NCBI RefSeq assembly: GCF_900100875.1
Contig: NZ_FNKQ01000003.1
Coordinates: 62,001-126,000 of the forward strand
Reading direction: 5' to 3'
Origin: Halopelagius longus
Lineage (GTDB): Archaea > Halobacteriota > Halobacteria > Halobacteriales > Haloferacaceae
Length of the DNA: 64,000 nt
A program made the translations under genes and the position numbers. Numbering within the stretch: the stretch's first letter is position 1; every line of letters starts with the position of its first letter. Below, in pieces: positions 29,913 through 63,647 of this stretch. The notes under the pieces are model-generated. The model saw only the letters and a list, made by a program, of their open reading frames with translations. It was not told where the DNA came from and made no database searches.

Positions 29913-32900
29913 TCACTCCCGCGGGCACCGCCCGGTCGGCGTCTCGCATCCGGGGCCGGGTTCCGTACCGTCCCACGCGGGCGATTTCTCGACCGCGTCG
30001 CCGTCTTTGTCGCCGACGCCGAGTCTCCCCGGCGGGACGACGACGGGAACGACCGTTCGCACGTCGAACCCGACGCGTTCGCTCCGGCCGAGCGTCTCCT
30101 TGACGCCGTCGCCGTCCACGTCGAGGGCGACGACGCTCCCGTCTCGGACGTACGTGACCGGCGTCTCGCCGCCGCGGTCCGCGGATACGGCGAAGCGAGC
30201 GTACTCGCCGCGGGCCTCCACGACCCAGAGGTTCGTCGTCGCAACCCACGGGTTCAGCGTCGGCGAGAGGGGGAGGCCGGCGGGCGTGCCGCCGAGGGAG
30301 GCGTACTTCTGGGCGGCGCGTTCGGTCCCGCGCCCCGCCGCATCCGTCAGGAGTTTCGTCCCGACTTTGCGCGTCCGCGACACCGTCCGGTTGGTGGCGC
30401 GTTGCGGCACGCGAACGGCGGACTCCGTCGCCGCGGCGGCGACATCGACGCGAAGCGCCGTCTCCAGCCGGTCGCGGGCCGTCGCGTCAGTCGGTTCGAC
30501 TTCGGCGGCGACGGCCGCCGCGAACGACCCGTTCGTCGCCGCGACGGCGCGTCGCCCGGTCCCCTCCCACCGATCAAAGGCGGCGTTGACCGCCCTGCGA
30601 CGGTCGTCCTTCGGGAGGTCGGTCTCCGCGCCCAACGTCTCGACGGCCCGCGAGCGAACGGCGCGGAGCGAGTCCTCCGTCTTCCGTCGGAGCGTGTCGC
30701 GGCGACCCGCCAGCGTCTCGTCGTCGGTGGTCGCGAGCGTCCGGTTCGCGGCGGTGAGCGCCTTCCCCGCCGTCCGGAGCGACACCGACTCGCCGGACCC
30801 GAAGAGGGCGTTGACGACCGCGTCGGAGGCGTCCCCGTACGGGAGCGTGAACACGTTGGTGTTGCGCGCCGCGAGGGGGTAGTACCGCGTTTCGTCGCCG
30901 ACGCCGTCCACTCGGTCGCCGGAGACGGGCTTCACGGAGAGGTACGCCGGGTCGCCGTCGGGAACGAACGCCGCCGACCCGCCGAGCGTCGAGTCGTTCC
31001 CGTACTCGTGGCGGGCGGGCGTCCGAACCGTGCGGTTGGCCGCGATGCGGTTCGCCCGTTCGGCGTCGACACCGCGGTCGACGAGGGCCTCCTCGATGCC
31101 CTCGTTTCGGGCCGCGGTCCGATTCGCTCGCTCGTCGAGGGCCGCGAGGAGTCGGTTCAGGTAGGCCGCCCGCGCCGCGACGCGGACGCGGTCCGCCGCC
31201 CCATCGTAGGAGTCGGGGGCGGCCACCAGCGACGCGCGGCGCTCTCGGATGACACTCGCCAACCGGGCCGCGGGGTTGACGCGGCCGGTCGCGACCGCCC
31301 GCGCGGGCGGTTCGACGGCGACGTTCCGAACTCGCTCGCGGAGAGACGCCACGTCGTCGTACACCCACGCGCGGAGTTCGTCAGGGCGTCGGCCGTCGAC
31401 GGTCGTGACGACCGGTTCCTCGCCGCCGACCGCCCGGCGGGCGACGGCGTCCGCGCCGCCGCGTTCGGCGAAGGCGTCGCCGACGGCGTCGGGTACCTGT
31501 CGAAGGTTCGGCCCGTCGACTGCGCCGCCGCGTTCGAAGAGCGGGTCGACCGGTCGCTCCGGCCCCGGAACCGATGCGAGCGAGCCGGTGACGGCCATCT
31601 CGACTCGGTAGGCGTCGGTCCACGTCGCATCCGTACTTCGGGACGAGCGGTTCGCGTGTCGCCACGTCCGTTCGACGCGGTGCTCGACCACGACGCGCCG
31701 GACGGCGGTGTCGAAGACGCGTTCGCCCGAATCGGTCCGCGGCCGAGTCGCCGTCCCACCGGCCGATTCAACGCGCGTCTCGCGGGACGTCTCCTGTCCG
31801 GTCATCGCCCACCCCTCTCCGGGGGCGTCCGGCGCGGGACGGGATCCGTCTCGGACCGTCGTCGCGTCCGACTGGACCGTCACCCGCACTCGGTAGCCGT
31901 CGCGGCGAATCGTCTCGAACCCCGCGCGTTCCCCGTCGCCGCGGAGGAACTTGACGAACGCCTCGTCGGCCGTGCGGCCCACGTCGACGCGGAGCGTCTC
32001 GTCCGTCGAGGGCGGCGCGGCGGTCGGTATCGTGGCGTTCTCCGATTCTGGGGGCGCCGCGGCGTCGGTCACGCCGTCGGCGATGAACGCCGCCCCGTCG
32101 CTCCCCGCGACGGGCGTGAGAACGTCCGTGAGTCCGGTTCGGGCGGTCGCCCGCCGAACGCCGCGGCGGGCGTCGGGGTCGCTCCGGCCGAACGCGGCGC
32201 GTTGGGCGGTCAGGAGGCCGGCGTTCGTCGAGAGTTCGACGTGCCGGTTCGCGAGGACGTTCTGAATCGGCGCGCCGGCGTACTGGGCGGCCCCTCGCAC
32301 CTGCACGACGCCGAGGAGTCCCGCCGTCGTCCGGCGGGCGAGTCCCGGGGATTCGAGCGGATTTGCGTCGAGTCGACGCTGGTAATCGACGGTTCGGTCG
32401 TGGAGTCCGAGGACGGGGACGGCTACGGTGAGCGTCCGGGTGACCGACTCCTCGGCGACCATCCGTCCGTCGCGTCGGGCCGTCAGCGAGACGTTCCTGA
32501 CTGTGACGCGAAGTGCGGTTCCGTTGGCCGTCTTGGCGACGGAGACTCGACGTATCGCCTCGCGGACCGACGACTCGTTTTTCGGGGTCGCCGGACAGCG
32601 TCCGGCGGCCCGACAAGCGCTGCTCGTCGGCGTCGGCAACGAGGCGTTCGCAACCACGTCGCCGCGTTCGTGTTCGACCGAGCGAAGCGACTCCGCCGCG
32701 GCGAGCGAAATGCGGAGACGGAGATACCGACGGAACGTCCGATTTTCCCCCAGCACTTCGCCGACGGCGGTGGTCGAGTTGTCGGTCACGGGGTCGCGCG
32801 CGGCGGCGAGTGCGGCGTCGTGGGCGGCGGTTCGGAGCGCCGTCGTCGTCTCGGCGTCGATTCGGTCCATCGACTCGTCGACGGTCCGGTCGGCGGCGCT

Positions 32901-33008
32901 GGGTCCCCCCGTCGCGAGCGACGCGCCGTACGTCGAACTCGTCACGAGGAGGAGGACGCCGACGAGGGCGAACGGGACGCGCCCGCGGTTGTCGTCCGCG
33001 AGGCGCAT
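29913..33008 (-). CDS. Large pilus-cluster surface protein (DUF7286 type)
   Basis: 1031 aa, last gene of the pilus cluster. One N-terminal hydrophobic helix (about residues 11-31, 'PFALVGVLLLVTSSTYGASL') after 'ADDNRGRV' suggests a pseudopilin-like or signal-anchor start. The rest is a long, mainly hydrophilic exoplasmic region rich in Asn-x-Thr/Ser sequons (for example 'NRTF', 'NGT', 'NVSL', 'NRTVS'), consistent with a heavily N-glycosylated surface protein. I recall this as DUF7286. It overlaps the preceding gene by one base (TGATG). It may be a tip or adhesin-like subunit; that is inference from size, topology and context. Confidence 0.8.
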   Translation of the reverse strand: MRLADDNRGRVPFALVGVLLLVTSSTYGASLATGGPSAADRTVDESMDRIDAETTTALRTAAHDAALAAARDPVTDNSTTAVGEVLGENRTFRRYLRLRISLAAAESLRSVEHERGDVVANASLPTPTSSACRAAGRCPATPKNESSVREAIRRVSVAKTANGTALRVTVRNVSLTARRDGRMVAEESVTRTLTVAVPVLGLHDRTVDYQRRLDANPLESPGLARRTTAGLLGVVQVRGAAQYAGAPIQNVLANRHVELSTNAGLLTAQRAAFGRSDPDARRGVRRATARTGLTDVLTPVAGSDGAAFIADGVTDAAAPPESENATIPTAAPPSTDETLRVDVGRTADEAFVKFLRGDGERAGFETIRRDGYRVRVTVQSDATTVRDGSRPAPDAPGEGWAMTGQETSRETRVESAGGTATRPRTDSGERVFDTAVRRVVVEHRVERTWRHANRSSRSTDATWTDAYRVEMAVTGSLASVPGPERPVDPLFERGGAVDGPNLRQVPDAVGDAFAERGGADAVARRAVGGEEPVVTTVDGRRPDELRAWVYDDVASLRERVRNVAVEPPARAVATGRVNPAARLASVIRERRASLVAAPDSYDGAADRVRVAARAAYLNRLLAALDERANRTAARNEGIEEALVDRGVDAERANRIAANRTVRTPARHEYGNDSTLGGSAAFVPDGDPAYLSVKPVSGDRVDGVGDETRYYPLAARNTNVFTLPYGDASDAVVNALFGSGESVSLRTAGKALTAANRTLATTDDETLAGRRDTLRRKTEDSLRAVRSRAVETLGAETDLPKDDRRRAVNAAFDRWEGTGRRAVAATNGSFAAAVAAEVEPTDATARDRLETALRVDVAAAATESAVRVPQRATNRTVSRTRKVGTKLLTDAAGRGTERAAQKYASLGGTPAGLPLSPTLNPWVATTNLWVVEARGEYARFAVSADRGGETPVTYVRDGSVVALDVDGDGVKETLGRSERVGFDVRTVVPVVVPPGRLGVGDKDGDAVEKSPAWDGTEPGPGCETPTGRCPRE

Positions 33009-33880
33009 CAGGCGGCCCTCCCGTCGGACTCCCACGTCCGAACGACGACCCGGACCCGGTGGACTTCGACCGCCTCCGCCGCCGCCTCCGGCGACTCGAA
33101 CCGGTCGCGCAGGTCCGCCTCCACCGCGGGCGCGAGGGCGTCGGCGAGGCGGCGGTTCAGCGCCGTCGTGTTCTCCGCGCGGAGGTCCCGTTCGACGGGG
33201 ACGCCGAGTTCGTGTCCGAGGCGGCCGTATCGGTGCCACATCAGCGCCGAGACGGGGTAGTCGCCCCGAAGCGCGAGCGACGCGGCTTCGGGCGGGACGA
33301 GCGCTTCGACGGTTCGCTCGGCGACGGCCGACGCGAGCGTCCCGAAGTCGTCCGCCGCCGACGAGGGTACCGGTTCGACGCCGCTCGGTACCGACAGCGT
33401 CGCGGCGTGGACCGTCGCCGCCGACGGCGGTTTCGCCCCGACGCCGACCCGTCCGCCGACGGTCGAACCTGGGTAGGGACGCCACACCGCGTCGACGCGG
33501 AGCGAGGACGCCTCGAACGCGCCGGTGACCGCCCCGCGAACGGCCCGCGGGAAGTCGTCCCGCGCGCCCGTCAGCGAGTCGTTTCCGAACCCGGCGGTGG
33601 CGACGGCGGCGCGCGCGAGGAGGCCCGCGAGCGTCCCGTGCGTCGTTCGGCGGAACTCCGACCCGTTCTCGCGGGGGAACGCGGCGGGGGTGCCCCGCAC
33701 CGGGCCGGTTCCCGGCCGAAGCGAATACTCCACCGTCGCGGTACTCGTCGCGAGCGTCTCCGCGGCGGCGTCCGTGCGCGTCGAATCTCCCGTTTCGACG
33801 GGGTCGGAGACGGCGGTGACGCCGAAGACGGCCGCGCCGACGAGGAGGAGACAGACCGCGGCGTCGACGGCGGCGTTCAT
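33008..33880 (-). CDS. Pilus-cluster single-TM protein (DUF7284 type)
   Basis: 290 aa. The start at 33880 gives 'MNAAVDAAVCLLLVGAAVFGVTAV', a very short N-terminus followed immediately by one hydrophobic helix, then an exoplasmic domain ('LATSTATVEYSLRPG', 'TTHGTLAGLLARAAVAT', 'ALMWHRYGRLGHELGVPVERDLRAENTTALNRRL'). A longer frame upstream is just overlap with the neighbour. It overlaps the previous gene by 4 bp (ATGA) and the next by 1 bp. Pilin-like topology. Family name DUF7284 is recalled, not checked. Confidence 0.75.
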   Translation of the reverse strand: MNAAVDAAVCLLLVGAAVFGVTAVSDPVETGDSTRTDAAAETLATSTATVEYSLRPGTGPVRGTPAAFPRENGSEFRRTTHGTLAGLLARAAVATAGFGNDSLTGARDDFPRAVRGAVTGAFEASSLRVDAVWRPYPGSTVGGRVGVGAKPPSAATVHAATLSVPSGVEPVPSSAADDFGTLASAVAERTVEALVPPEAASLALRGDYPVSALMWHRYGRLGHELGVPVERDLRAENTTALNRRLADALAPAVEADLRDRFESPEAAAEAVEVHRVRVVVRTWESDGRAA

Positions 33881-34287
33881 CGCCACACCGCCACGCGGAG
33901 GCGTCCGGGGACGACGGACCCGGGACCGAAGCGGACGCTCGTCGTCCGACTCGCCGCGTCGGTCGGCGTCCCGTTCGGCGGCGTCGGACCGGCCGTCCAC
34001 CGCCGGTCGCCCGCGGTGAGCGTGACGTTCAGTCGGCGTCCGTCCGGTGCCGCCGATTGCGCCGTTCCGAGCGCAGACGGGTCGGCGACGCCGCCGTCCG
34101 CGAGTTCCTCGGAGACGCGGTGGAGCGTCGGGTCCGCGTACGTTCGGTCGTCGCCGAGGGCGGCGGTCCCGCCGAGGGCGACGACGTAGATGCTCACGCC
34201 GGTACAGACGGCGAAGAGGGCGACGAGGGCGGCGAGCGGAGACGCCTGCCCCCGTTCGCGACCCTCACGCGTCCACGAGAACGACAT
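33877..34287 (-). CDS. Pseudopilin-like protein (DUF7285 type)
   Basis: 136 aa. 'REGRERGQASPLAALVALFAVCTGVSIYVVAL' places R-G-Q-A just before a Ser-Pro and one hydrophobic helix. This agrees with the archaeal prepilin-peptidase consensus [KRDE][GA][ALIFQMVED][ILMVTAS], so cleavage after A15 is predicted. The rest is a small beta-rich domain ending 'GSVVPGRLRVAVWR'. Overlaps the upstream gene by 23 bp and the downstream by 4 bp, so tightly coupled. Probably a minor pilin. DUF7285 by recall. Confidence 0.75.
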   Translation of the reverse strand: MSFSWTREGRERGQASPLAALVALFAVCTGVSIYVVALGGTAALGDDRTYADPTLHRVSEELADGGVADPSALGTAQSAAPDGRRLNVTLTAGDRRWTAGPTPPNGTPTDAASRTTSVRFGPGSVVPGRLRVAVWR

Positions 34288-34744
34288 CGACTCCCTCCCA
34301 AGAGGTGCGGCGAACGATGAGCGTGCGGTCCACGTCGCGCCACGTCGCGGTATCCGACTCCACGCGTGCGTCCACGATAGCCTGCTGAAACGCCGCCTTC
34401 GACTCGAAGACGCGCTCCGGCGGAGCGCCGTGCAGGACCGCTCGGAGCGGCGAATCGCCGGTCGGGACGGGCGTTACGGGGCCGAATCCGAACGTCGCGT
34501 GCGCGGTTCCGGCGTCGTTTCGCAGCGAGATGCGCCGAGTGCCGAGTCGGACCGAAGCGGCGTCGAGCGGATGTTCGGCGGTGGCGTCGTACTCCGCGGC
34601 GGCCACTCGGTCTACGGTCTCCGCGGCGTCCGTCGCGTTCGGCGGCGGCGTCGTCGGGAGACCCGCGACGGCGCCGACGAGTGCGAGACTCGCAAGCGAC
34701 AGTCCGAACCACGCGTACCACGAGTCGAGGGGAACGTCGAGCAT
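34265..34744 (-). CDS. Pilus-cluster single-TM protein (DUF7283 type)
   Basis: 159 aa, first gene of the second transcription unit of the cluster. 'MLDVPLDSWYAWFGLSLASLALVGAVAGLP' is a signal-anchor, then a soluble domain 'VRLGTRRISLRNDAGTAHATFGFGPVTPV', 'LIVRRTSWEGVDVVLVDA'. The ATG is set by a TATATAAA box 26 bp upstream (leaderless). I recall the same N-terminus in haloarchaeal DUF7283 proteins next to PilB/PilC. Function unknown, probably part of the pilus or secretion machine. Confidence 0.78.
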   Translation of the reverse strand: MLDVPLDSWYAWFGLSLASLALVGAVAGLPTTPPPNATDAAETVDRVAAAEYDATAEHPLDAASVRLGTRRISLRNDAGTAHATFGFGPVTPVPTGDSPLRAVLHGAPPERVFESKAAFQQAIVDARVESDTATWRDVDRTLIVRRTSWEGVDVVLVDA

Positions 34745-34766
34745 GGGGGTGCTGGCCGCCCGCCCG

Positions 34767-34774
34767 TATATAAA
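34767..34774 (-). promoter_or_regulatory. TATA box of the second pilus transcription unit
   Basis: Minus-strand TTTATATA, centred about 26 bp before the ATG at 34744, inside the 42-bp spacer after pilC. Exactly 21 bases, including GGCCAGC, separate TTTATATAC from the ATG, the same as at the pilB promoter (38497-38504). Confidence 0.7.
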
Positions 34775-34786
34775 GTCTCGCAGGGA

Positions 34787-36517
34787 TCAGAACAGAAGCG
34801 ACGCGCCGGCGAACGCGGCGAGGTACGCCCCCGTCGCCGCCAAGAGAGCGAGACCGACGCGGTAGCCGACGAGCGTTCGGTCGAGCCCCCGGTCGAGTCC
34901 GGTCGAGAGCATCGTCAGCAGACCGGCGAGACAGAGCGCGTACGCGCCAACCGAGACGCCGAGCGTCCCCGTCGAGAGCGCCGTCGCCTCGCCCGAAAGC
35001 GAGAGGTCCGTCTCGGCCATCCGCGCCGCCATCGCCACCGTCGCGCCCGCGACGAGGGGCGCGAAGAACGCCGCCGTGTTCGCGAGCGTCCCGGTCACGG
35101 AGGACAACTGTCGCCGCGCCTCGCGTTCGACGCGCCGGAGTTCGCGGAGGTGGTCGGCGGTGGCGACGATAGCACCGCCCGCCGGTCGGCCTTCGGTGGC
35201 GGCGACGGCGAGAAGCGCGGCGGCACCCCGCGTTCGCGGGCTCGGAACGTCCGCGAGCGCGCCGTACTCGCCGAGGAACGCCTCCCGAACGCCGACGCGG
35301 AGTCGCCGTCGAACCCCGGCGGCGTCAGACAGCATCTCGCCCGTCGCGCCGTCGATGTCATCGGCGGCGTCTTCGACGGCCGTCTCGACCGCCGTTCCGT
35401 CGTCCACGCGCCGGCCGACGAGGTACAGGGCGTCGTCCAGTCGGGACTCCACGTCGCGGACGCGGCGACGGACGCGGGCCATCGGATAGTAGTGGGCCGC
35501 CAGCGACGCGCCGAGACCGAATCCGGCCGCCGCGACGGGCGACGCCCACGAGGCGACCACCCCGCCGCCGACCCATCCGACGGCGACGCCGACGAGCCCG
35601 GCGAGTACTCCGCGGTGCGGACCGGCGGTCACGTCCGGGTGGTCGCTCCCGACGCGCGGCGGCGGGAGGGCGACGGGACGGCGCACGAGCAACCACGCGC
35701 TCGCCGCGACGACGACGAGGGGCAGGAAGACGTTGTAGGCGAAGACGAACGCGCTCGTCGGGAGCGTCAGTCCCGCGGCGCGGGCGGCGGGGAGGACGCC
35801 GACCAACGCGAGGGGTAACAGGACGCCGAAGGCGTACAGCGCCGTCGTCGGCCCGCGAACCGTCGACGCGAAGTCGGCCATCTCGTCGTGCGTCCCGTCG
35901 AGAACCGCCTCCAGCGCTCGGTCCAGCGACCGACTCCGCTCGCCCTCCGCGGCGTCGGCGCTGGTGAGGAGAAGCGAGACCGAACGGTCGACGGCGGGGA
36001 ACCACGGCGACCACTCCTCGGCGAACGACTCCAGCGCCGACTCCGGTGCGCCGCGCGCCCGCCGGACGTGGGATTCGAGGCTCTCGGAGAGGGGGCCGTC
36101 GCCCGTTCTCGTGGCGAAGAGCGCGGCGCGTTCGGGCGTCGGTTCGAGTCGCATCCGGAGGGCGGCACGCCCCACGAGGTCGGCCGTCTCGCCCAGCGCG
36201 CGCGTCCGTCGGAGCGCCGCCATCCCGACCGGGAGTCGATGGACCGCGTGCGTCGCCGCGAGACCCGCCGTCACCGCGAGGAGGAGTCGCGTGACGACCG
36301 GAGACGCCGGCGCGAGGAGCGTCGAAGCGACGAGGACGACCAGCGACGCCGGAACCGCGGCGACGTACCCCGCCCGCACGACGGTTTCGGCGTCCACGTC
36401 GACGCCGAGAAACGCCGCCGACCGCCGAAGGTCGTCGCCGACCGACACCGGCCACGGGTACGCCCGGGCTAGCTCTCGTGCGAGCGTCGTCGCCGTCGAG
36501 TCGCCGCTTGCGTCCAC
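34787..36517 (-). CDS. PilC/TadC-type pilus assembly membrane protein (T2SS F family)
   Basis: 576 aa. Two T2SSF-like halves, each ending in membrane helices: residues about 45-95, 215-300 and 325-360, then three or four near the C-terminus ('FFAPLVAGATVAMAARMAE', 'LCLAGLLTMLSTGLDRG', 'ALLAATGAYLAAFAG'). The cytoplasmic loops contain 'VESRLDDALYLVGRRVDDGTAVETAVEDAA' and 'LRRVEREARRQLSSVTGTLANTAAFFAPLV', typical of archaeal PilC/FlaJ-like platform proteins. It anchors pilin polymerisation in the membrane with the PilB ATPase, whose gene lies one base upstream. Confidence 0.9.
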   Translation of the reverse strand: MDASGDSTATTLARELARAYPWPVSVGDDLRRSAAFLGVDVDAETVVRAGYVAAVPASLVVLVASTLLAPASPVVTRLLLAVTAGLAATHAVHRLPVGMAALRRTRALGETADLVGRAALRMRLEPTPERAALFATRTGDGPLSESLESHVRRARGAPESALESFAEEWSPWFPAVDRSVSLLLTSADAAEGERSRSLDRALEAVLDGTHDEMADFASTVRGPTTALYAFGVLLPLALVGVLPAARAAGLTLPTSAFVFAYNVFLPLVVVAASAWLLVRRPVALPPPRVGSDHPDVTAGPHRGVLAGLVGVAVGWVGGGVVASWASPVAAAGFGLGASLAAHYYPMARVRRRVRDVESRLDDALYLVGRRVDDGTAVETAVEDAADDIDGATGEMLSDAAGVRRRLRVGVREAFLGEYGALADVPSPRTRGAAALLAVAATEGRPAGGAIVATADHLRELRRVEREARRQLSSVTGTLANTAAFFAPLVAGATVAMAARMAETDLSLSGEATALSTGTLGVSVGAYALCLAGLLTMLSTGLDRGLDRTLVGYRVGLALLAATGAYLAAFAGASLLF

Positions 36518-36518
36518 G

Positions 36519-38474
36519 TCAGTTCACCTCCCGTTCGCGGTAGGCGGTCCGGACGTCTTCGGGGCGGGTCCTGTCCGTCTCGGCGAGGCGGCCGAGGTGC
36601 GTCGCGCGTTCGTCGAGGGCGTCGAGAACGTCGGCGTACGTCTCGGCCGGTTCCGCGAGCGACGCCGCGAGTGCGCTGTCGCCGCGTTCGATTCGGCCCG
36701 TCGCGTCGAGTCCGTCCGCGTCCGACTCGTAGAGCGTCTCGAACCGTACGCCCTCCTCGCCGGTTCGCACCTCCTCGATGGCGGCGACGCGCCTCCTGGG
36801 GCCGTCGCGGGCGCACGTCACCACGAGGTCCGTCGCGCCGAACGCCGACTCGGCGACGCCGAGGTCGGAGACGACGCGCTCCCGGACGGCCGCCGCGGAG
36901 TCGCCGTGTATCGTCCCGAGGACGGCGTTGCCGTGTGCGCCGACGCGCATCGCCTCGTACAGCGTCCCCGCCTCCTCGCCCCGCACCTCGCCGACGACGA
37001 GAGCGCCGTCGCCGAGTCGGAGCGCCGTCTTGAGAGCGTCGTCGGGCGAGAACGACCCCTCGCCGCCGTCGAGTTCGACGGTGAGCGGTTGCACGTCGCG
37101 GCCGCCCTCCCGGAGCGCTTCGACCGGTAGTTCCGGCGTGTCCTCGACGGTGACGAGGCGCGTCGCGTCCGGGAGTTCCCAGAGTAGCGACCCCAAAAGC
37201 GTCGTCTTCCCCGCTCCGCGCGTCCCCGCCACCAGCGCCGCCGCCCCGCGTTCGGCGGCGAGAGAGAGGAGGGCCGCCGCGTCGGCCGGGAGGGTGCCCG
37301 CCGCGACGAGTCCCGGGAGCGTCCACGCGTCGTCGCCGTGTGCGCGGAACGCGAAGCCGATACCGTCGCTGGCGGGCGCGGTGACGCCCGCGACGCGAAC
37401 CTTCGTCCCGTCGGGGCGCGTCACCGAGGCGTCGAGTGCGGGCGTCGCGCGCGAGAACGCCCGTCCGCTGGCGCGGCGGAACCGCGAGGCGAGGGCGGCC
37501 GCGCCGTCGGCGGTGAGTCGGACGTTCGTCCGCACCCGTTCGCCGTCGAGAGTGACCCGGACCGGGTTCTCCTCGACCGGCGCCGACGCCACCACGTCCG
37601 TGACGCGCGGGTCGGCGAACAGGTCGTCGAGGACGCCGTTTCCGCGGGTGTACCGCCGAAGCACGTCCGTCAGCGTCTCGACGGGCGTCGAGTCGTCCGC
37701 GACGCGGCGGACGGCGCGGCCCGGTGCGCGGTCACCGCCCTCGACTCCGCCTCTGGCGAGGCAGTCGTACGCCGATTCGAGCGTCGCCGTCGCGGCGGGG
37801 TCGAGAGCGTGCGCGACGGGCGTGAGGTGATAGAGCGTTCCGTCGGGCGTCTCGTACGCGCGAACGGTCGCGCCGGACGGGAGTTCGCGGCGGTCGAGGA
37901 GCGACGCCCCGGCGGGCGGGCGAAGCGTGACGCGCGAACGGGCGACCGACGGCCCGACGGCGGGCCGAATCGCGTCGTCGTACCCGTCCACTCGCGCGGC
38001 CCCCTCTTCGAGACCGGTTTCGGCGACGATTCGGCCGACGGCCCCGGCGCGTCCCGCCGCCTCACGCGCCGCGCCGAGTGGGTCGCGCCGGGCGCGGGCG
38101 GCGAGCGATTCGTCGTGAAACTCGACGCGTTCGACGAACCGGCCCGCCGCGAGGAGCAGTCCCGCGGCGTCGCCCTCGTACGTCCGACCGACGCCGTCCG
38201 CGACGGTTCGGACGACGTCGGCGTCGCGGGTCGCCAACGCGCCGACGACCGTCGCGCGGCAGTCGGGACTCGAAGCGAGGTCACCGCCGCCGGGACAGTC
38301 GTCGGCGTCCACGACGAGTTCCGCGCGCCGTCGGTCGGACCGTCCGGCGGGCGTCTCGAATCGCGGGTCGCAGCGACAGGCGTCGTCTTCCGAGTCCGTT
38401 CCGGAGCGAACCGCCCCGACTCCCGCCGTGACGGCGGATACGAGGTTCAGATCGGCGTCGAAATCGATCGGCAT
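36519..38474 (-). CDS. PilB/TadA-type secretion ATPase (GspE family)
   Basis: 651 aa. Walker A 'GTRGAGKTTLLGSLL' near residues 413-427 and Walker B 'GALVVGEVRGEEAGTL' near 487, with the Asp box 'VTVEDTPELPV' and His box 'GTIHGDSA', mark the secretion ATPase superfamily. The N-terminal ~300 residues include a Cys pair region ('DACRCDPRF') and the N2-like 'LFADPRVTDVVASAPVEENPV'. It powers pilin polymerisation or export. The ATG at 38474 is fixed by a TATATAAA box 26 bp upstream; longer upstream reading is spurious. The pilC ATG follows the stop after one base. Confidence 0.93.
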   Translation of the reverse strand: MPIDFDADLNLVSAVTAGVGAVRSGTDSEDDACRCDPRFETPAGRSDRRRAELVVDADDCPGGGDLASSPDCRATVVGALATRDADVVRTVADGVGRTYEGDAAGLLLAAGRFVERVEFHDESLAARARRDPLGAAREAAGRAGAVGRIVAETGLEEGAARVDGYDDAIRPAVGPSVARSRVTLRPPAGASLLDRRELPSGATVRAYETPDGTLYHLTPVAHALDPAATATLESAYDCLARGGVEGGDRAPGRAVRRVADDSTPVETLTDVLRRYTRGNGVLDDLFADPRVTDVVASAPVEENPVRVTLDGERVRTNVRLTADGAAALASRFRRASGRAFSRATPALDASVTRPDGTKVRVAGVTAPASDGIGFAFRAHGDDAWTLPGLVAAGTLPADAAALLSLAAERGAAALVAGTRGAGKTTLLGSLLWELPDATRLVTVEDTPELPVEALREGGRDVQPLTVELDGGEGSFSPDDALKTALRLGDGALVVGEVRGEEAGTLYEAMRVGAHGNAVLGTIHGDSAAAVRERVVSDLGVAESAFGATDLVVTCARDGPRRRVAAIEEVRTGEEGVRFETLYESDADGLDATGRIERGDSALAASLAEPAETYADVLDALDERATHLGRLAETDRTRPEDVRTAYREREVN

Positions 38475-38496
38475 GGCGTCGCTGGCCCCGTCCCGG

Positions 38497-38504
38497 TATA
38501 TAAA
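38497..38504 (-). promoter_or_regulatory. TATA box of pilB-pilC
   Basis: Minus-strand TTTATATA about 26 bp before the pilB ATG at 38474, in a 56-bp spacer after the pilin-like gene. Its sequence and spacing nearly copy the promoter at 34767-34774. Confidence 0.7.
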
Positions 38505-38530
38505 CCTCGGGAGGGGACTCGACTCGCCTC

Positions 38531-38992
38531 TCACGCCCGTCGAACGACGACGACGGGTCCCTCGGGTCGGGAGAGAAGCGAGAACGAGAGCGCGTGCGAC
38601 CCCGACCCGCGGAGGACGACAGGGCCGTCGGGCGTCCGCAGTGGAACCGGCAGCGACAGTCGCCGCACCGTCTCCCGGCCGCCGGAGAGGGCGTACGTCA
38701 GAACCGGCCGGGACCCCCTCTCCCCCGGTTTGCCGCCGACGGCGACGTACGAGACGCCGGCGGCAGTCCACGAACGTGCGGGGACGCTGACACGGACCGT
38801 CCGCCGCGGGGCCGTCGAGAGCGAGAGCGTCGGGTCGTCGCCGTACGCGAGCGATTCGACGGCCCGGACCATGCGCTCTGCGTCGGCGTCGAGATTCGTC
38901 GCCGCGCGGTCGGCGCGGGCGTCCTCGACGGCCGGAAGCGCCGCCGCGAGGAGTGCGGCGGCGAGCGTCGCCGCGAGGAGGAGCCGAATCAC
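38531..38992 (-). CDS. Small pilin-like exported protein (DUF7311 type)
   Basis: 153 aa. 'MIRLLLAATLAAALLAAALPAVEDARADRAATNLDADAERMVRAVESL' is one N-terminal hydrophobic helix followed by an amphipathic helix, exactly the shape of a pseudopilin. A beta-rich domain follows ('TVRVSVPARSW', 'YVAVGG', 'PVVLRGSGSHALSFSLL'). No clear prepilin-peptidase site precedes the helix, so cleavage is uncertain. It starts one base after the stop of the coiled-coil gene. DUF7311 by recall. Confidence 0.72.
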   Translation of the reverse strand: MIRLLLAATLAAALLAAALPAVEDARADRAATNLDADAERMVRAVESLAYGDDPTLSLSTAPRRTVRVSVPARSWTAAGVSYVAVGGKPGERGSRPVLTYALSGGRETVRRLSLPVPLRTPDGPVVLRGSGSHALSFSLLSRPEGPVVVVRRA

Positions 38993-38993
38993 C

Positions 38994-39539
38994 TCAGAGC
39001 GCCCCGCGGAGGCGCGCCGCGAGGGAGTCAGTCTCCTCCTCCGCGTCGGAGGCGTCCGTTCCCGTCCGGTCAGCCCTCGTCCCCTCGTCCGCCGCCTCCG
39101 ACAGGTCGTCGACGGGGACGCGTTCGACGACGAGTTCGTCGCCGTCGGCCTCCGGCGATTCGAGCCGTTCTATCGCCGCGAGGGCGGCGTCGGCCTTGCG
39201 TTCGACCGACTCGTCCACCGCGCGGACGCCGTCGAGGAGGCCGCGTACGGCGTCGAGTTCGGCTTCGAGCGTCTCGACTCGGTCCCGAAGCGCCTCCATT
39301 TCGGCGTCTCTCCCCGCCGTGTCGGCGTCCGCGTCTTCGACGCGCGCGCCGGTCGTCTCCCCGTCGTCGTCCGCCGGAGCGGACGTGTCAGTCGCCGGCG
39401 AGTCGACGCCGTCGCCGTCGCCGGTCACCGCTCGTTCGACGGCGTCGAGACGGGCGGCGAGCGCGTCGAAATCGGCGGAGTTCGTCCGTCGGTCGGTCGA
39501 GCGTCGCTCGGCGGTACCGCGCGTCGAGTTCGGAGCCAT
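38994..39539 (-). CDS. Acidic coiled-coil protein heading the pilus cluster (DUF7310 type)
   Basis: 181 aa. A coiled coil is evident at about residues 18-35 ('FDALAARLDAVERAVTG') and 80-130 ('MEALRDRVETLEAELDAVRGLLDGVRAVDESVERKADAALAAIERLE'), with heptad-spaced Leu/Val. Acidic disordered linkers surround it. No membrane segment, so cytosolic. The ATG at 39539 is chosen over one at 39563, because the latter overlaps the TATA box and 39539 lies 28 bp from it. Divergent from cetZ. It may organise the ATPase complex; inference only. Confidence 0.75.
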   Translation of the reverse strand: MAPNSTRGTAERRSTDRRTNSADFDALAARLDAVERAVTGDGDGVDSPATDTSAPADDDGETTGARVEDADADTAGRDAEMEALRDRVETLEAELDAVRGLLDGVRAVDESVERKADAALAAIERLESPEADGDELVVERVPVDDLSEAADEGTRADRTGTDASDAEEETDSLAARLRGAL

Positions 39540-39562
39540 GGGCCGACTGGTCACGTCATCCA

Positions 39563-39570
39563 ACTTAAAC
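39563..39570. promoter_or_regulatory. Possible bidirectional TATA between the pilus cluster and cetZ
   Basis: ACTTAAAC reads as GTTTAAGT on the minus strand. It is about 28 bp from the coiled-coil ATG (39539) and about 49 bp from the cetZ ATG (39615). No other good TATA-like sequence lies in the 75-bp spacer, so both directions may use it. Confidence 0.5.
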
Positions 39571-39614: not shown

Positions 39615-40703
39615 ATGAAAACCGTCCTGATTGGCGTCGGACAGGCGGGTGGCAAGCTCACCCGGGAACTGGCCGACTTCGACTCTCGAATGGGCTTCGG
39701 GGCCGTCCTCGGTGCCGTCGGAGTCAACACCGCAGAAGCAGACCTCCAAGAACTCCCGTTCGAGACGGTCCTCATCGGACAGGACCGCGTGAAGGGTCAC
39801 GGCGTCGGCGGCGACAACGAACTCGGCGCGGAAGTGATGCAGTCGGACAAACAAGAGGTGCTCGCCGCCCTCGAAGGTCGAATCACCGCCGAGGCGGAGG
39901 CCATCTTCGTCGTCGCCGGACTCGGCGGCGGCACCGGGAGCGGCGGCGCGCCGGTCCTCGTGAAGGAACTCAAGCGCATCTACGACGTGCCCGTGTACGC
40001 CCTCGGCGTCCTCCCCGGCCGAAACGAGGGCGCGATGTATCAGGTGAACGCCGGCCGGTCGCTGAAGACCGTCGCGCGCGAAGCCGACTCGCTGCTCCTC
40101 GTCGACAACGACGCGTTCCGCGCCACCGGCGAGAGCCTCGGCGAGGGGTTCGACGCAATCAACCGCGAAATCGCCCAGCGGGTCGGCCTGCTGTTCGCTT
40201 CGGGCGAGGCCGTCGAGGGCGTCGGCGAGAGCGTCGTCGACTCCTCGGAGGTCATCAACACGCTCCGCTCCGGCGGCATCGCGGCGCTCGGGTACGCCTC
40301 TGGCGAGTCCGCCGAAAACGCGGAGGGGAACATAAACACCGTGATGAGCACGACCCGTCGCGCGCTCATGACGGGGACGAGCCTGCCGGAGGCGAACGAA
40401 GCCGACGCGGCGCTTCTCGTCGTCGCGGGCGTCCCCGACAAGATTCCGCGCAAGGGCGTCGAGCGCGCCCGGCGATGGCTCGAAGAGGAGACGGGCAGCC
40501 TGCAGGTCCGCGGCGGCGACTTCCCCCTCGACAGCGACCGAATCGCGTCGCTGATTCTGCTCGGCGGCGTCGAACGCTCCGACCGACTGGAGAAGTTCAT
40601 GGCGCGCGCGAAGGAGGCCCAGAAGGAAGCCGAGGAGGAAGCCGAAAAGCAGGAAGACCCGGCGGACGCGTGGCGGAACGACGAGCTCGAAGACCTGCTC
40701 TGA
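39615..40703 (+). CDS. cetZ: CetZ tubulin-superfamily GTPase
   Basis: 362 aa. The tubulin signature GGGTGSG is at residues 104-110 within '[18 protein letters not shown]'. The N-terminus 'MKTVLIGVGQAGGKLTREL' and 'VGVNTAEADLQ' are GTP-binding loops of CetZ rather than FtsZ. The C-terminus is a charged helical tail ('AKEAQKEAEEEAEKQEDP'). CetZ proteins control cell shape and motility in Haloferax (recall: CetZ1 for rod shape). Of the paralogues this looks nearest to CetZ2 by its N-terminus, unverified. ftsZ1 is encoded separately at 62469-63617. Confidence 0.92.
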   Translation: MKTVLIGVGQAGGKLTRELADFDSRMGFGAVLGAVGVNTAEADLQELPFETVLIGQDRVKGHGVGGDNELGAEVMQSDKQEVLAALEGRITAEAEAIFVVAGLGGGTGSGGAPVLVKELKRIYDVPVYALGVLPGRNEGAMYQVNAGRSLKTVAREADSLLLVDNDAFRATGESLGEGFDAINREIAQRVGLLFASGEAVEGVGESVVDSSEVINTLRSGGIAALGYASGESAENAEGNINTVMSTTRRALMTGTSLPEANEADAALLVVAGVPDKIPRKGVERARRWLEEETGSLQVRGGDFPLDSDRIASLILLGGVERSDRLEKFMARAKEAQKEAEEEAEKQEDPADAWRNDELEDLL

Positions 40704-62468: not shown

Positions 62469-63617
62469 TTAATCGACGTAGTCGATGTCCTGACCCGCGT
62501 TCGCCGGTTGCGGTTGGGGTTCCTCGTCTTCGTCGCTGCGACCGTAGATCTGCGGCGACTCGACGCCCGTGACGACGATCATCGTCCGCATCTGGCCCTC
62601 CAGTTCCTCGTCGACGGAGGTACCCCAGATGATGCGCGCGTCGGGGTCGATGCGGTCGTAAATCTCCTCGACGACGCCCTCCGCCTCCTCGATGCTCATG
62701 TCCGACCCGCCGGTGACGTTGACGAGCGCGGAGTTCGCGCCGGAGATGTCCACGTCGAGAAGCGGCGAGCGAAGCGCGCTCTTGACCGAATCTTGGGCCT
62801 TCTTCTCGGTGTCGGACTCGCCGAGTCCGATCATGGCGACGCCGCCGCGTTCCATGACCGTCTTCACGTCGGCGAAGTCGAGGTTGACGAGGCCGGGTTT
62901 GGTGATGAGTTCCGTGATCCCCTTCACCGAACGCATGAGGACTTCGTCGGAGACTTTGAACGCCTGCCGGACGGGCAGTTTGCCGACGGCGTCGAGCAAG
63001 CGGTCGTTCGGGACGACGATGACCGTATCCGCCACGTCGCGGAGGCGTTCCAGTCCGGCCTCGGCGTTCGTGCGCCGGACCTCGCCCTCCGCGGTGAACG
63101 GCGTCGTCACGATGGCGATGGTGAGCGCACCCGACTCGCGGGCCGCCTTGGCGACGACGGGCGCGGAACCCGTGCCGGTGCCGCCGCCGAGTCCGGCGGT
63201 GACGAACACCATGTCGGACCCGTCGATGGCCTCGTAGATCTCCTCTTGGGACTCGATGGCCGCCTCCTCACCCACCTGCGGAAGCGACCCCGCGCCGCGT
63301 CCCTGCGTCTTCTGTTCCCCCATCAGAATCTTCGTGTCCGCGTCGATCTCGACGAGATGCTGCACGTCGGTGTTCGCCGCGACCAGTTTCGCCCCCTTGA
63401 TTCCTTCCTCGAACATCCGGTTGACCGTGTTCCCGCCCGCGCCGCCGCATCCGACCACGGTGATGTTCGTCTGTAAGTCCTGGAGGACGTCCTTCAGTTC
63501 GTCGTCGGTCATCGTTCCCGTCCGGCGAATCTCTTCACCCTCGGAAGCGCCGACGTCAGGAGTCCCATCCCCCGTCTCTTCGGCCTCGTCAATTGCTTCG
63601 TCGACGATAGAGTCCAT
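62469..63617 (-). CDS. ftsZ1: Cell-division GTPase FtsZ1
   Basis: 382 aa. The GTP-binding tubulin signature GGGTGTG is at residues 144-150. '[39 protein letters not shown]' begins the nucleotide domain, '[37 protein letters not shown]' follows, and '[36 protein letters not shown]' is the T7 loop with catalytic Asp. An acidic N-terminal ~45 residues is typical of haloarchaeal FtsZ1. FtsZ1 forms the division ring with FtsZ2 in haloarchaea (recall). Confidence 0.97.
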
Positions 63618-63647
63618 GCTATATGGCCGTTCTTACCGAATGGAGCA

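What the first reader, a model, noticed from the sequence alone, without database searches (positions are those of the whole stretch)
29913..39539. Eight-gene type IV pilus/secretion cluster with uncharacterised minor-pilin-like proteins
Besides PilB and PilC there are six proteins of unknown role: a cytosolic coiled coil, a pseudopilin-shaped protein, three short single-TM proteins and a 1031-aa single-TM surface protein rich in N-glycosylation sequons. Gene junctions overlap or are within 1 bp in each unit. No major pilin or prepilin peptidase is present in the cluster, so what it assembles is open: a pilus with a giant tip adhesin, or a secretion system.
Basis: partly seen in the sequence, partly recalled or inferred. 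Interest (0 to 1): 0.6.

Follow-up and report, generated by a model that had tools for sequence, protein, structure and literature searches.

The report
Type IV machine with giant pilin
The eight genes encode a known but unstudied haloarchaeal relative of pilus-building machines, whose mystery proteins look like a pilin-like tip complex crowned by a 1,031-residue protein; in methane-making archaea the same giant protein has a hypervariable tip backed by spare, seemingly silent tip copies.

Summary
Eight adjacent minus-strand genes (39539-29913) are DUF7310, DUF7311, PilB, PilC, DUF7283, DUF7285, DUF7284 and DUF7286. The cluster matches the cetZ2-adjacent pilB2/C2 regulon already described in silico (PMC9856176; Makarova subclade 4F-like, PMC4858521); the adjacent tubulin is a CetZ2 ortholog.

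New here:
(1) PilC2 and DUF7286 co-occur almost perfectly: 146 genomes with both, 43 with neither, 5 DUF7286 only, 0 PilC2 only, even where unlinked.
(2) A five-protein set (DUF7311, 7283, 7285, 7284, 7286) is shared with methanogens, there apart from PilB/PilC and with Gly/Ala at a prepilin-cleavage-like position. DUF7284 is related to a known pilin family.
(3) DUF7286 and DUF7284 match no solved fold.
(4) In Methanosarcina-type genomes DUF7286 is followed by leaderless C-terminal cassettes: near-identical arms, abruptly divergent tips. The haloarchaeal tip is conserved.

Best reading: a type IV filament machine with a minor-pilin-like tip complex capped by DUF7286; function undetermined. No major pilin lies in any locus. 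Prepilin peptidase and PilA-type pilins lie elsewhere.

The parts
38994..39539 (-). DUF7310, cytosolic coiled coil, 181 aa (arCOG07564-like; stays beside PilB-PilC in all six split haloarchaeal loci)
   Evidence: Pfam DUF7310 3e-16; split loci
39562..39569 (-). A/T box TTTAAGTT, promoter-like, unit 1, -30..-23 from ATG
   Evidence: A/T box in 21 of 41 orthologs against about 3 in control windows
38531..38992 (-). DUF7311, single N-terminal TM, 153 aa; homologous to methanogen X1
   Evidence: Pfam 2.4e-44; hhalign to X1 96.9%, E 1.8e-10
38497..38504 (-). TATA box TTTATATA, promoter-like, unit 2 (PilB-PilC)
36519..38474 (-). PilB2, VirB11/TadA-type ATPase with N-terminal CxC...C...C domain (likely start ATG 38474; GTG 38534 is also open)
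   Evidence: T2SSE 3.5e-19; Walker A GTRGAGKT, Cys motif and tree
34787..36517 (-). PilC2, multi-span platform protein
   Evidence: weak T2SSF match, E 0.057, below cut-off; next to PilB wherever both were found
34767..34774 (-). TATA box TTTATATA, promoter-like, unit 3
   Evidence: A/T box in 43 of 50 orthologs against 1.5 in control windows
34265..34744 (-). DUF7283, single N-terminal TM, 159 aa
   Evidence: Pfam 1.7e-57; weak profile match to methanogen X2
33877..34287 (-). DUF7285, 136-aa pilin-like protein with RG|QASP prepilin-like site
   Evidence: Pfam 1.9e-36; position -1 only G/A in 50 sequences; 7 of 34 members weakly match DUF7287
33008..33880 (-). DUF7284, 290 aa, pilin-like; leader lost here (MNAAVD), C-terminal helical extension
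   Evidence: Pfam 4e-91; relation to DUF7262; N-terminus analysis; AlphaFold2 pLDDT 88.9
29913..33008 (-). DUF7286, giant pilin-like protein, 1031 aa, N-terminal R-G|R-V-P-F-A motif
   Evidence: Pfam 1149.6 bits; conservation; AlphaFold2 pLDDT 82.4
39615..40703 (+). CetZ2 tubulin, divergently transcribed neighbour
   Evidence: PDB 4B45 556.8 bits against 4B46 324.2 bits
29401..29829 (-). DUF5791 gene, conserved flank (not taken as part of the machine)

Best explanation
The cluster encodes an archaeal type IV filament machine. PilB2 (ATPase) and PilC2 (membrane platform), assisted by the cytosolic coiled coil DUF7310, push out a complex of pilin-like proteins. Five of these (DUF7311, DUF7283, DUF7285, DUF7284, DUF7286) form an ancient set that I read as a minor-pilin tip (priming) complex, comparable in plan to the four minor pilins plus tip protein of type IVa pili. 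DUF7286 is the giant member: a pilin-like N-terminal helix carrying about 1,000 extracellular, probably N-glycosylated residues, with its C-terminus as the exposed end. The major subunit is either a pilin encoded elsewhere or DUF7285 itself. CetZ2 may position the machine. Shown computationally: gene set, conservation, co-occurrence, prepilin-like motifs, DUF7284-pilin homology, separability of motor and pilin modules. Inferred: processing by PibD, assembly into one complex, tip position, role of CetZ2, and any surface function.
For: PilC2 and DUF7286 co-occur in 146 of 194 genomes, PilC2 never alone, including seven haloarchaea and six methanogens where they are unlinked. All 146 genomes with DUF7284 fall among the 151 with DUF7286. 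DUF7286 position 9 is only Gly (28) or Ala (24), flanked by near-invariant R8, R10, P12, F13, A14; DUF7285 position 13 is only Gly (32) or Ala (18), mostly after R/K and before Q. 32 of 52 DUF7284 orthologs carry R-[GA]-x-S/T-..D (33 with a slightly wider pattern). A short syntenic DUF7284 (L095) matches DUF7262, a family of the genome's PilB1-type pilus locus, at 6.5e-19. Methanogens carry X1-X2-DUF7285-DUF7284-DUF7286 with Gly/Ala at -1 in nearly all. The PilB2 clade is separate from four other type IV ATPases of the genome and lies with methanogen PilB of the same system. Four-minor-pilins-plus-tip architecture of T4aP: PMC10191384.
Against: DUF7311 and DUF7283 have no prepilin motif in haloarchaea, and DUF7284 in this window has lost its leader. 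Residue +1 of DUF7286 (Arg) is unusual for a prepilin. PilC2 is below the Pfam cut-off. No major pilin lies in either module in any locus, and delta-pilB3 Haloferax volcanii is used in the literature as a strain showing only archaella (PMC13286277), so no PilB2 filament has been seen there. Foldseek finds no relative of DUF7284 or DUF7286. Co-occurrence is measured on related genomes, so the Fisher p-value overstates independence.
Confidence: 0.6

Rival explanations
1. An ordinary surface pilus: PilB2/PilC2 assembles a long pilus from a PilA-family major pilin encoded elsewhere (arCOG02981 or arCOG10216, as Makarova proposed), with the cluster proteins as minor subunits.
For: Makarova 2016 links subclade 4F to stand-alone PilA-family pilins; Pilin_N genes exist in this genome; PilB3 uses pilins encoded in trans.
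Against: No pilin gene beside PilB2/PilC2 in any haloarchaeal or methanogen locus searched; no PilB2-dependent filament reported in the papers read.
Confidence: 0.3
2. A short pseudopilus that exports or displays folded proteins, like type II secretion.
For: No major pilin in the cluster; no visible filament reported; fixed, conserved subunit set.
Against: No conserved secreted-substrate gene in the haloarchaeal loci; giant DUF7286 has no counterpart among T2SS pseudopilins.
Confidence: 0.2
3. In methanogens, and perhaps ancestrally, the giant protein is a polymorphic-toxin-like or kin-recognition effector with a cognate membrane-anchored partner; haloarchaea keep a fixed version.
For: Tip plus partner cassettes with near-identical arms and divergent tips; a partner gene nearly always follows the full gene in methanogens.
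Against: No toxin domain detected; no partner seen in haloarchaea; tip more conserved than the neighbouring region in 1195 of 1275 haloarchaeal pairs.
Confidence: 0.15
4. A non-filament membrane complex for envelope or cell-shape work with CetZ2.
For: CetZ2 adjacency here and in many loci, including three split motor loci (PMC9856176).
Against: CetZ2 adjacency is missing in many loci that keep the machine, and no CetZ2 was found in the methanogen loci; delta-cetZ2 phenotypes are mild (PMC10606840).
Confidence: 0.1

Closest known systems
pilB2/C2 regulon adjacent to cetZ2 in Haloferacales and Halobacteriales (Brown and Duggin 2023, PMC9856176)
   Same: Same flanks (exopolyphosphatase-like, epimerase and DUF5791 on one side; CetZ2 and phosphodiesterase on the other), same pilB/pilC regulon with a surface protein
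   Different: No difference found; that work gives no role for the individual proteins
Makarova archaeal T4P subclade 4F (PMC4858521)
   Same: Cys-rich N-terminal PilB domain, cytosolic coiled coil, shared by haloarchaea and methanogens
   Different: Subclade placement not tested against their reference sequences (Legerme 2019, PMC6491452, puts PilB2 in 4C); here the pilin-like module is defined as five proteins with DUF7286 as a member
Type IVa pilus tip complex (minor pilins HIJK plus PilC/PilY1)
   Same: Four small pilin-like proteins plus one protein of about 1,000 aa, assembled by an extension ATPase and a platform
   Different: DUF7286 carries its own pilin-like N-terminus and shows no PilY1 domain
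Tad (T4cP) system
   Same: Closest NCBIfam ATPase model is TadA (1.2e-35)
   Different: Below its cut-off (123 of 373 bits); no Flp, TadE, TadF, TadG or TadZ match
VARTIG modules of Thermococcales (PMC8416519)
   Same: Hypervariable C-terminus of a large surface protein with recombination, like the methanogen cassettes
   Different: Ig-domain proteins; different gene content; not described as part of a type IV machine

Membership tests
Type IV filament superfamily | VirB11/GspE-type extension ATPase | tested here: met
   T2SSE 3.5e-19 with Walker A GTRGAGKT
Type IV filament superfamily | Platform protein with T2SSF domains | tested here: inconclusive
   T2SSF E 0.057, below cut-off; next to PilB wherever both were found
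Type IV filament superfamily | Pilins with class III (prepilin) signal | tested here: met
   Motif conservation in DUF7285 and DUF7286, and in most DUF7284 orthologs; DUF7284-DUF7262 homology. Cleavage itself not tested
Type IV filament superfamily | Prepilin peptidase in the genome | tested here: met
   One Peptidase_A24 gene at G000:C3:788274
Type IV filament superfamily | Identified major pilin and a filament | not testable with these tools
   No major pilin in the cluster or related loci; a filament needs microscopy
cetZ2-adjacent pilB2/C2 regulon | pilB/pilC regulon next to cetZ2 with arCOG03095 epimerase and arCOG04674 | tested here: met
   arCOG numbers matched by description and order, not by database
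Makarova subclade 4F | Cys-rich N-terminal PilB domain and coiled-coil partner | tested here: met
   CxC...C...C in most orthologs; DUF7310
Makarova subclade 4F | ATPase placed in 4F of the published tree | not tested
   Reference sequences not at hand
Tad (T4cP) | TadA ATPase above the curated cut-off | tested here: not met
   TIGR03819 123.4 bits against 373.15
PilY1-type tip adhesin | PilY1 domain or fold | tested here: not met
   No Pfam match besides DUF7286; no PDB fold match with E below 0.001

The most novel reading that the evidence does not exclude
DUF7286 defines a new kind of giant pilin-like tip protein. In Methanosarcina-type archaea its last ~110 residues, together with the ectodomain of a cognate membrane-anchored partner, are exchanged by recombination with silent downstream cassettes: a tip-switching or self/non-self recognition system on a type IV machine. 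The haloarchaeal cluster in this window is the fixed-tip form.
Probability: 0.4. Interest if true: 0.8.

Novelty: new variant of a known kind. Interest (0 to 1): 0.6.

Why it matters
The cluster is kept in about three quarters of the haloarchaeal genomes sampled and in many methanogens, yet its product is unknown. Naming the subunit set, separating motor and pilin-like modules and showing their co-occurrence turns 'eight unknown genes' into a testable machine. The methanogen cassettes, if functional, would be a recombinational tip-variation system on an archaeal type IV machine; none was found in the papers searched.

Tried and rejected
NCBIfam gave no convincing family for seven of the eight proteins. 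Foldseek against PDB gave nothing for DUF7284 or DUF7286. Hypothesis of a hypervariable adhesin in haloarchaea: rejected, the C-terminal tip is more conserved than the region before it. Near-neutral charge of DUF7286 as a sign of DNA binding: dropped, charge ranges from -19 to +6 per 100 aa across orthologs. DxDxDG loop as a conserved calcium site: frequent in haloarchaea, not in methanogens. A search for guessed HVO locus tags gave no papers. Profile search of PilC (A3) failed on the server and was replaced by a single-protein search.
Full report
What is there. In order they are DUF7310 (coiled coil), DUF7311, PilB (T2SSE 3.5e-19), PilC (T2SSF only E 0.057), DUF7283, DUF7285, DUF7284 and DUF7286, the last at 1149.6 bits over its full length. 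A/T boxes at identical spacing (-30 to -23 from the ATG) precede DUF7310, PilB and DUF7283, so there are probably three transcription units; an A/T box before DUF7283 is kept in 43 of 50 orthologs against 1.5 in control windows. The PilB start is then ATG 38474. DUF7286 has 14 N-glycosylation sequons against 4.2 +/- 1.9 in shuffles.

Known identity. The neighbour 39615-40703 is a CetZ2 ortholog (PDB 4B45 556.8 bits, 4B46 324.2 bits; that 4B45 and 4B46 are H. volcanii CetZ2 and CetZ1 is from my own knowledge). The flanks (phosphodiesterase, DUF5791, epimerase, exopolyphosphatase-like) match the published description of the cetZ2-adjacent pilB2/C2 regulon (PMC9856176). Makarova and colleagues described a system with a haloarchaeal coiled coil and a Cys-rich N-terminal ATPase domain as subclade 4F (PMC4858521). 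The window's PilB has a Cys motif, and its clade is sister to methanogen PilB proteins and apart from four other type IV ATPases of the genome (several branches are long and some rows partial, so only the grouping is used). Literature naming is inconsistent: PMC6491452 places PilB2 in 4C.

Conservation and synteny. DUF7286 occurs in 151 of 194 Halobacteria genomes and, mostly through its C-terminal part, in methanogens. Across 51 loci the order CetZ2 - DUF7310 - DUF7311 - PilB - PilC - DUF7283 - DUF7285 - DUF7284 - DUF7286 - DUF5791 - epimerase is strongly kept, with exceptions. DUF7284 occurs in 146 genomes, all with DUF7286. PilC2 occurs strongly in 146; two further weak hits (G184, G178) were not counted. 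Both: 146; DUF7286 only: 5 (G045, G012, G056, G067, G125, of which four have partial DUF7286); PilC2 only: 0; neither: 43. The genomes are related, so the p-value of 7e-38 is only descriptive. The link survives unlinking: seven haloarchaea and six methanogens have PilC2 at another place. In the six haloarchaeal split loci DUF7310 stays with PilB-PilC. This divides the system into a motor module (DUF7310, PilB, PilC) and a pilin-like module.

The pilin-like module. In methanogens the set is X1-X2-DUF7285-DUF7284-DUF7286 without local PilB/PilC. X1 is DUF7311 by profile comparison (96.9%, E 1.8e-10; controls 0.5%). X2 and DUF7283 match only weakly (16.9%, P 0.0015), so that equivalence rests mainly on gene order. 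N-termini: DUF7286 has R-[GA]-R-[VI]-P-F-A with Gly or Ala only at the -1-like position in 52 sequences; DUF7285 has [RK]-[GA]-Q-x-[ESD]-P in most of 50. In DUF7284, 32 of 52 orthologs have R-[GA]-x-S/T-..D by the first pattern; the second pass also accepts Asn and counts 33. Of the rest, 17 are leaderless, M-T-..-D or M-N-..-D (two could not be resolved). If Met is removed before Thr but kept before Asn (general rule, not tested here), the invariant Asp is residue 6 of the mature protein in all of them, as after cleavage in the class III forms. The number of independent leader losses was not determined. In methanogens Gly/Ala also stands at -1, with one X1 exception. A short DUF7284 in L095 matches DUF7262 (6.5e-19), a family found in the genome's PilB1-type pilus locus; seven of 34 DUF7285 members weakly match DUF7287. 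AlphaFold2 models of DUF7284 (pLDDT 88.9) and DUF7286 (82.4) have no PDB relative.

Major pilin and peptidase. The genome has one prepilin peptidase and five Pilin_N genes, none in the window. No pilin gene was found beside either module in related haloarchaeal loci, nor beside the methanogen PilB-PilC pairs; one methanogen locus (L111) has a second, different pilin set next to the five genes. In the held literature delta-pilB3 Haloferax volcanii is used because its only appendages are archaella (PMC13286277); no PilB2-dependent filament is reported there.

Methanogen cassettes. In Methanosarcina-type genomes the full DUF7286 gene is followed, with few exceptions, by a partner gene of about 200 aa (signal peptide, C-terminal TM). 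In nine loci there are also leaderless C-terminal copies, most of them followed by their own partner. In L116 full gene and cassette share an exact run of 1038 nt and then drop to 54-69% identity; the partners differ too. Among the 22 pairs with the most similar arms (0.84 and above) tip identity is 0.47-0.70 and partner ectodomain 0.37-0.81. Tip and partner distances correlate (Spearman 0.78), but so do arm and partner (0.73), so co-variation beyond shared descent is suggested, not proven. L116 is a draft assembly; genomes in one or two contigs show the same pattern less sharply. In haloarchaea the tip is more conserved than the arm in 1195 of 1275 pairs. A paper search found no report of this, but the library is incomplete.

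Verdict. The pilin-like tip-complex model is the best supported (0.6); what the machine does remains open.

Noticed in passing
L116, L117, L124, L160, L161, L162, L163, L164, L172: Methanogen DUF7286 genes or gene ends followed by leaderless C-terminal cassettes, most with a partner gene; near-identical arms and divergent tips.
   Followed up: partly
window 33880-33008 and orthologs: DUF7284 leader peptide is lost in several members of the window's own family (f1); the invariant Asp keeps position 6 if Met is removed before Thr but not before Asn.
   Followed up: partly
window 33008-29913: The extracellular DUF7286 is close to neutral in net charge, unusual for a haloarchaeal protein; orthologs range from -19 to +6 per 100 aa.
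   Followed up: partly
window 62472-63632: A second CetZ-family gene on the minus strand, scoring lower with the CetZ2 profile (269 bits).
   Followed up: no
G100:C1:1998797-2001895, G153:C1:35923-39023; remnants in G012, G056, G067, G125: DUF7286 interrupted by an in-frame stop (G100, G153, where PilC2 is still present) or reduced to partial copies (the other four, where PilC2 is missing).
   Followed up: no
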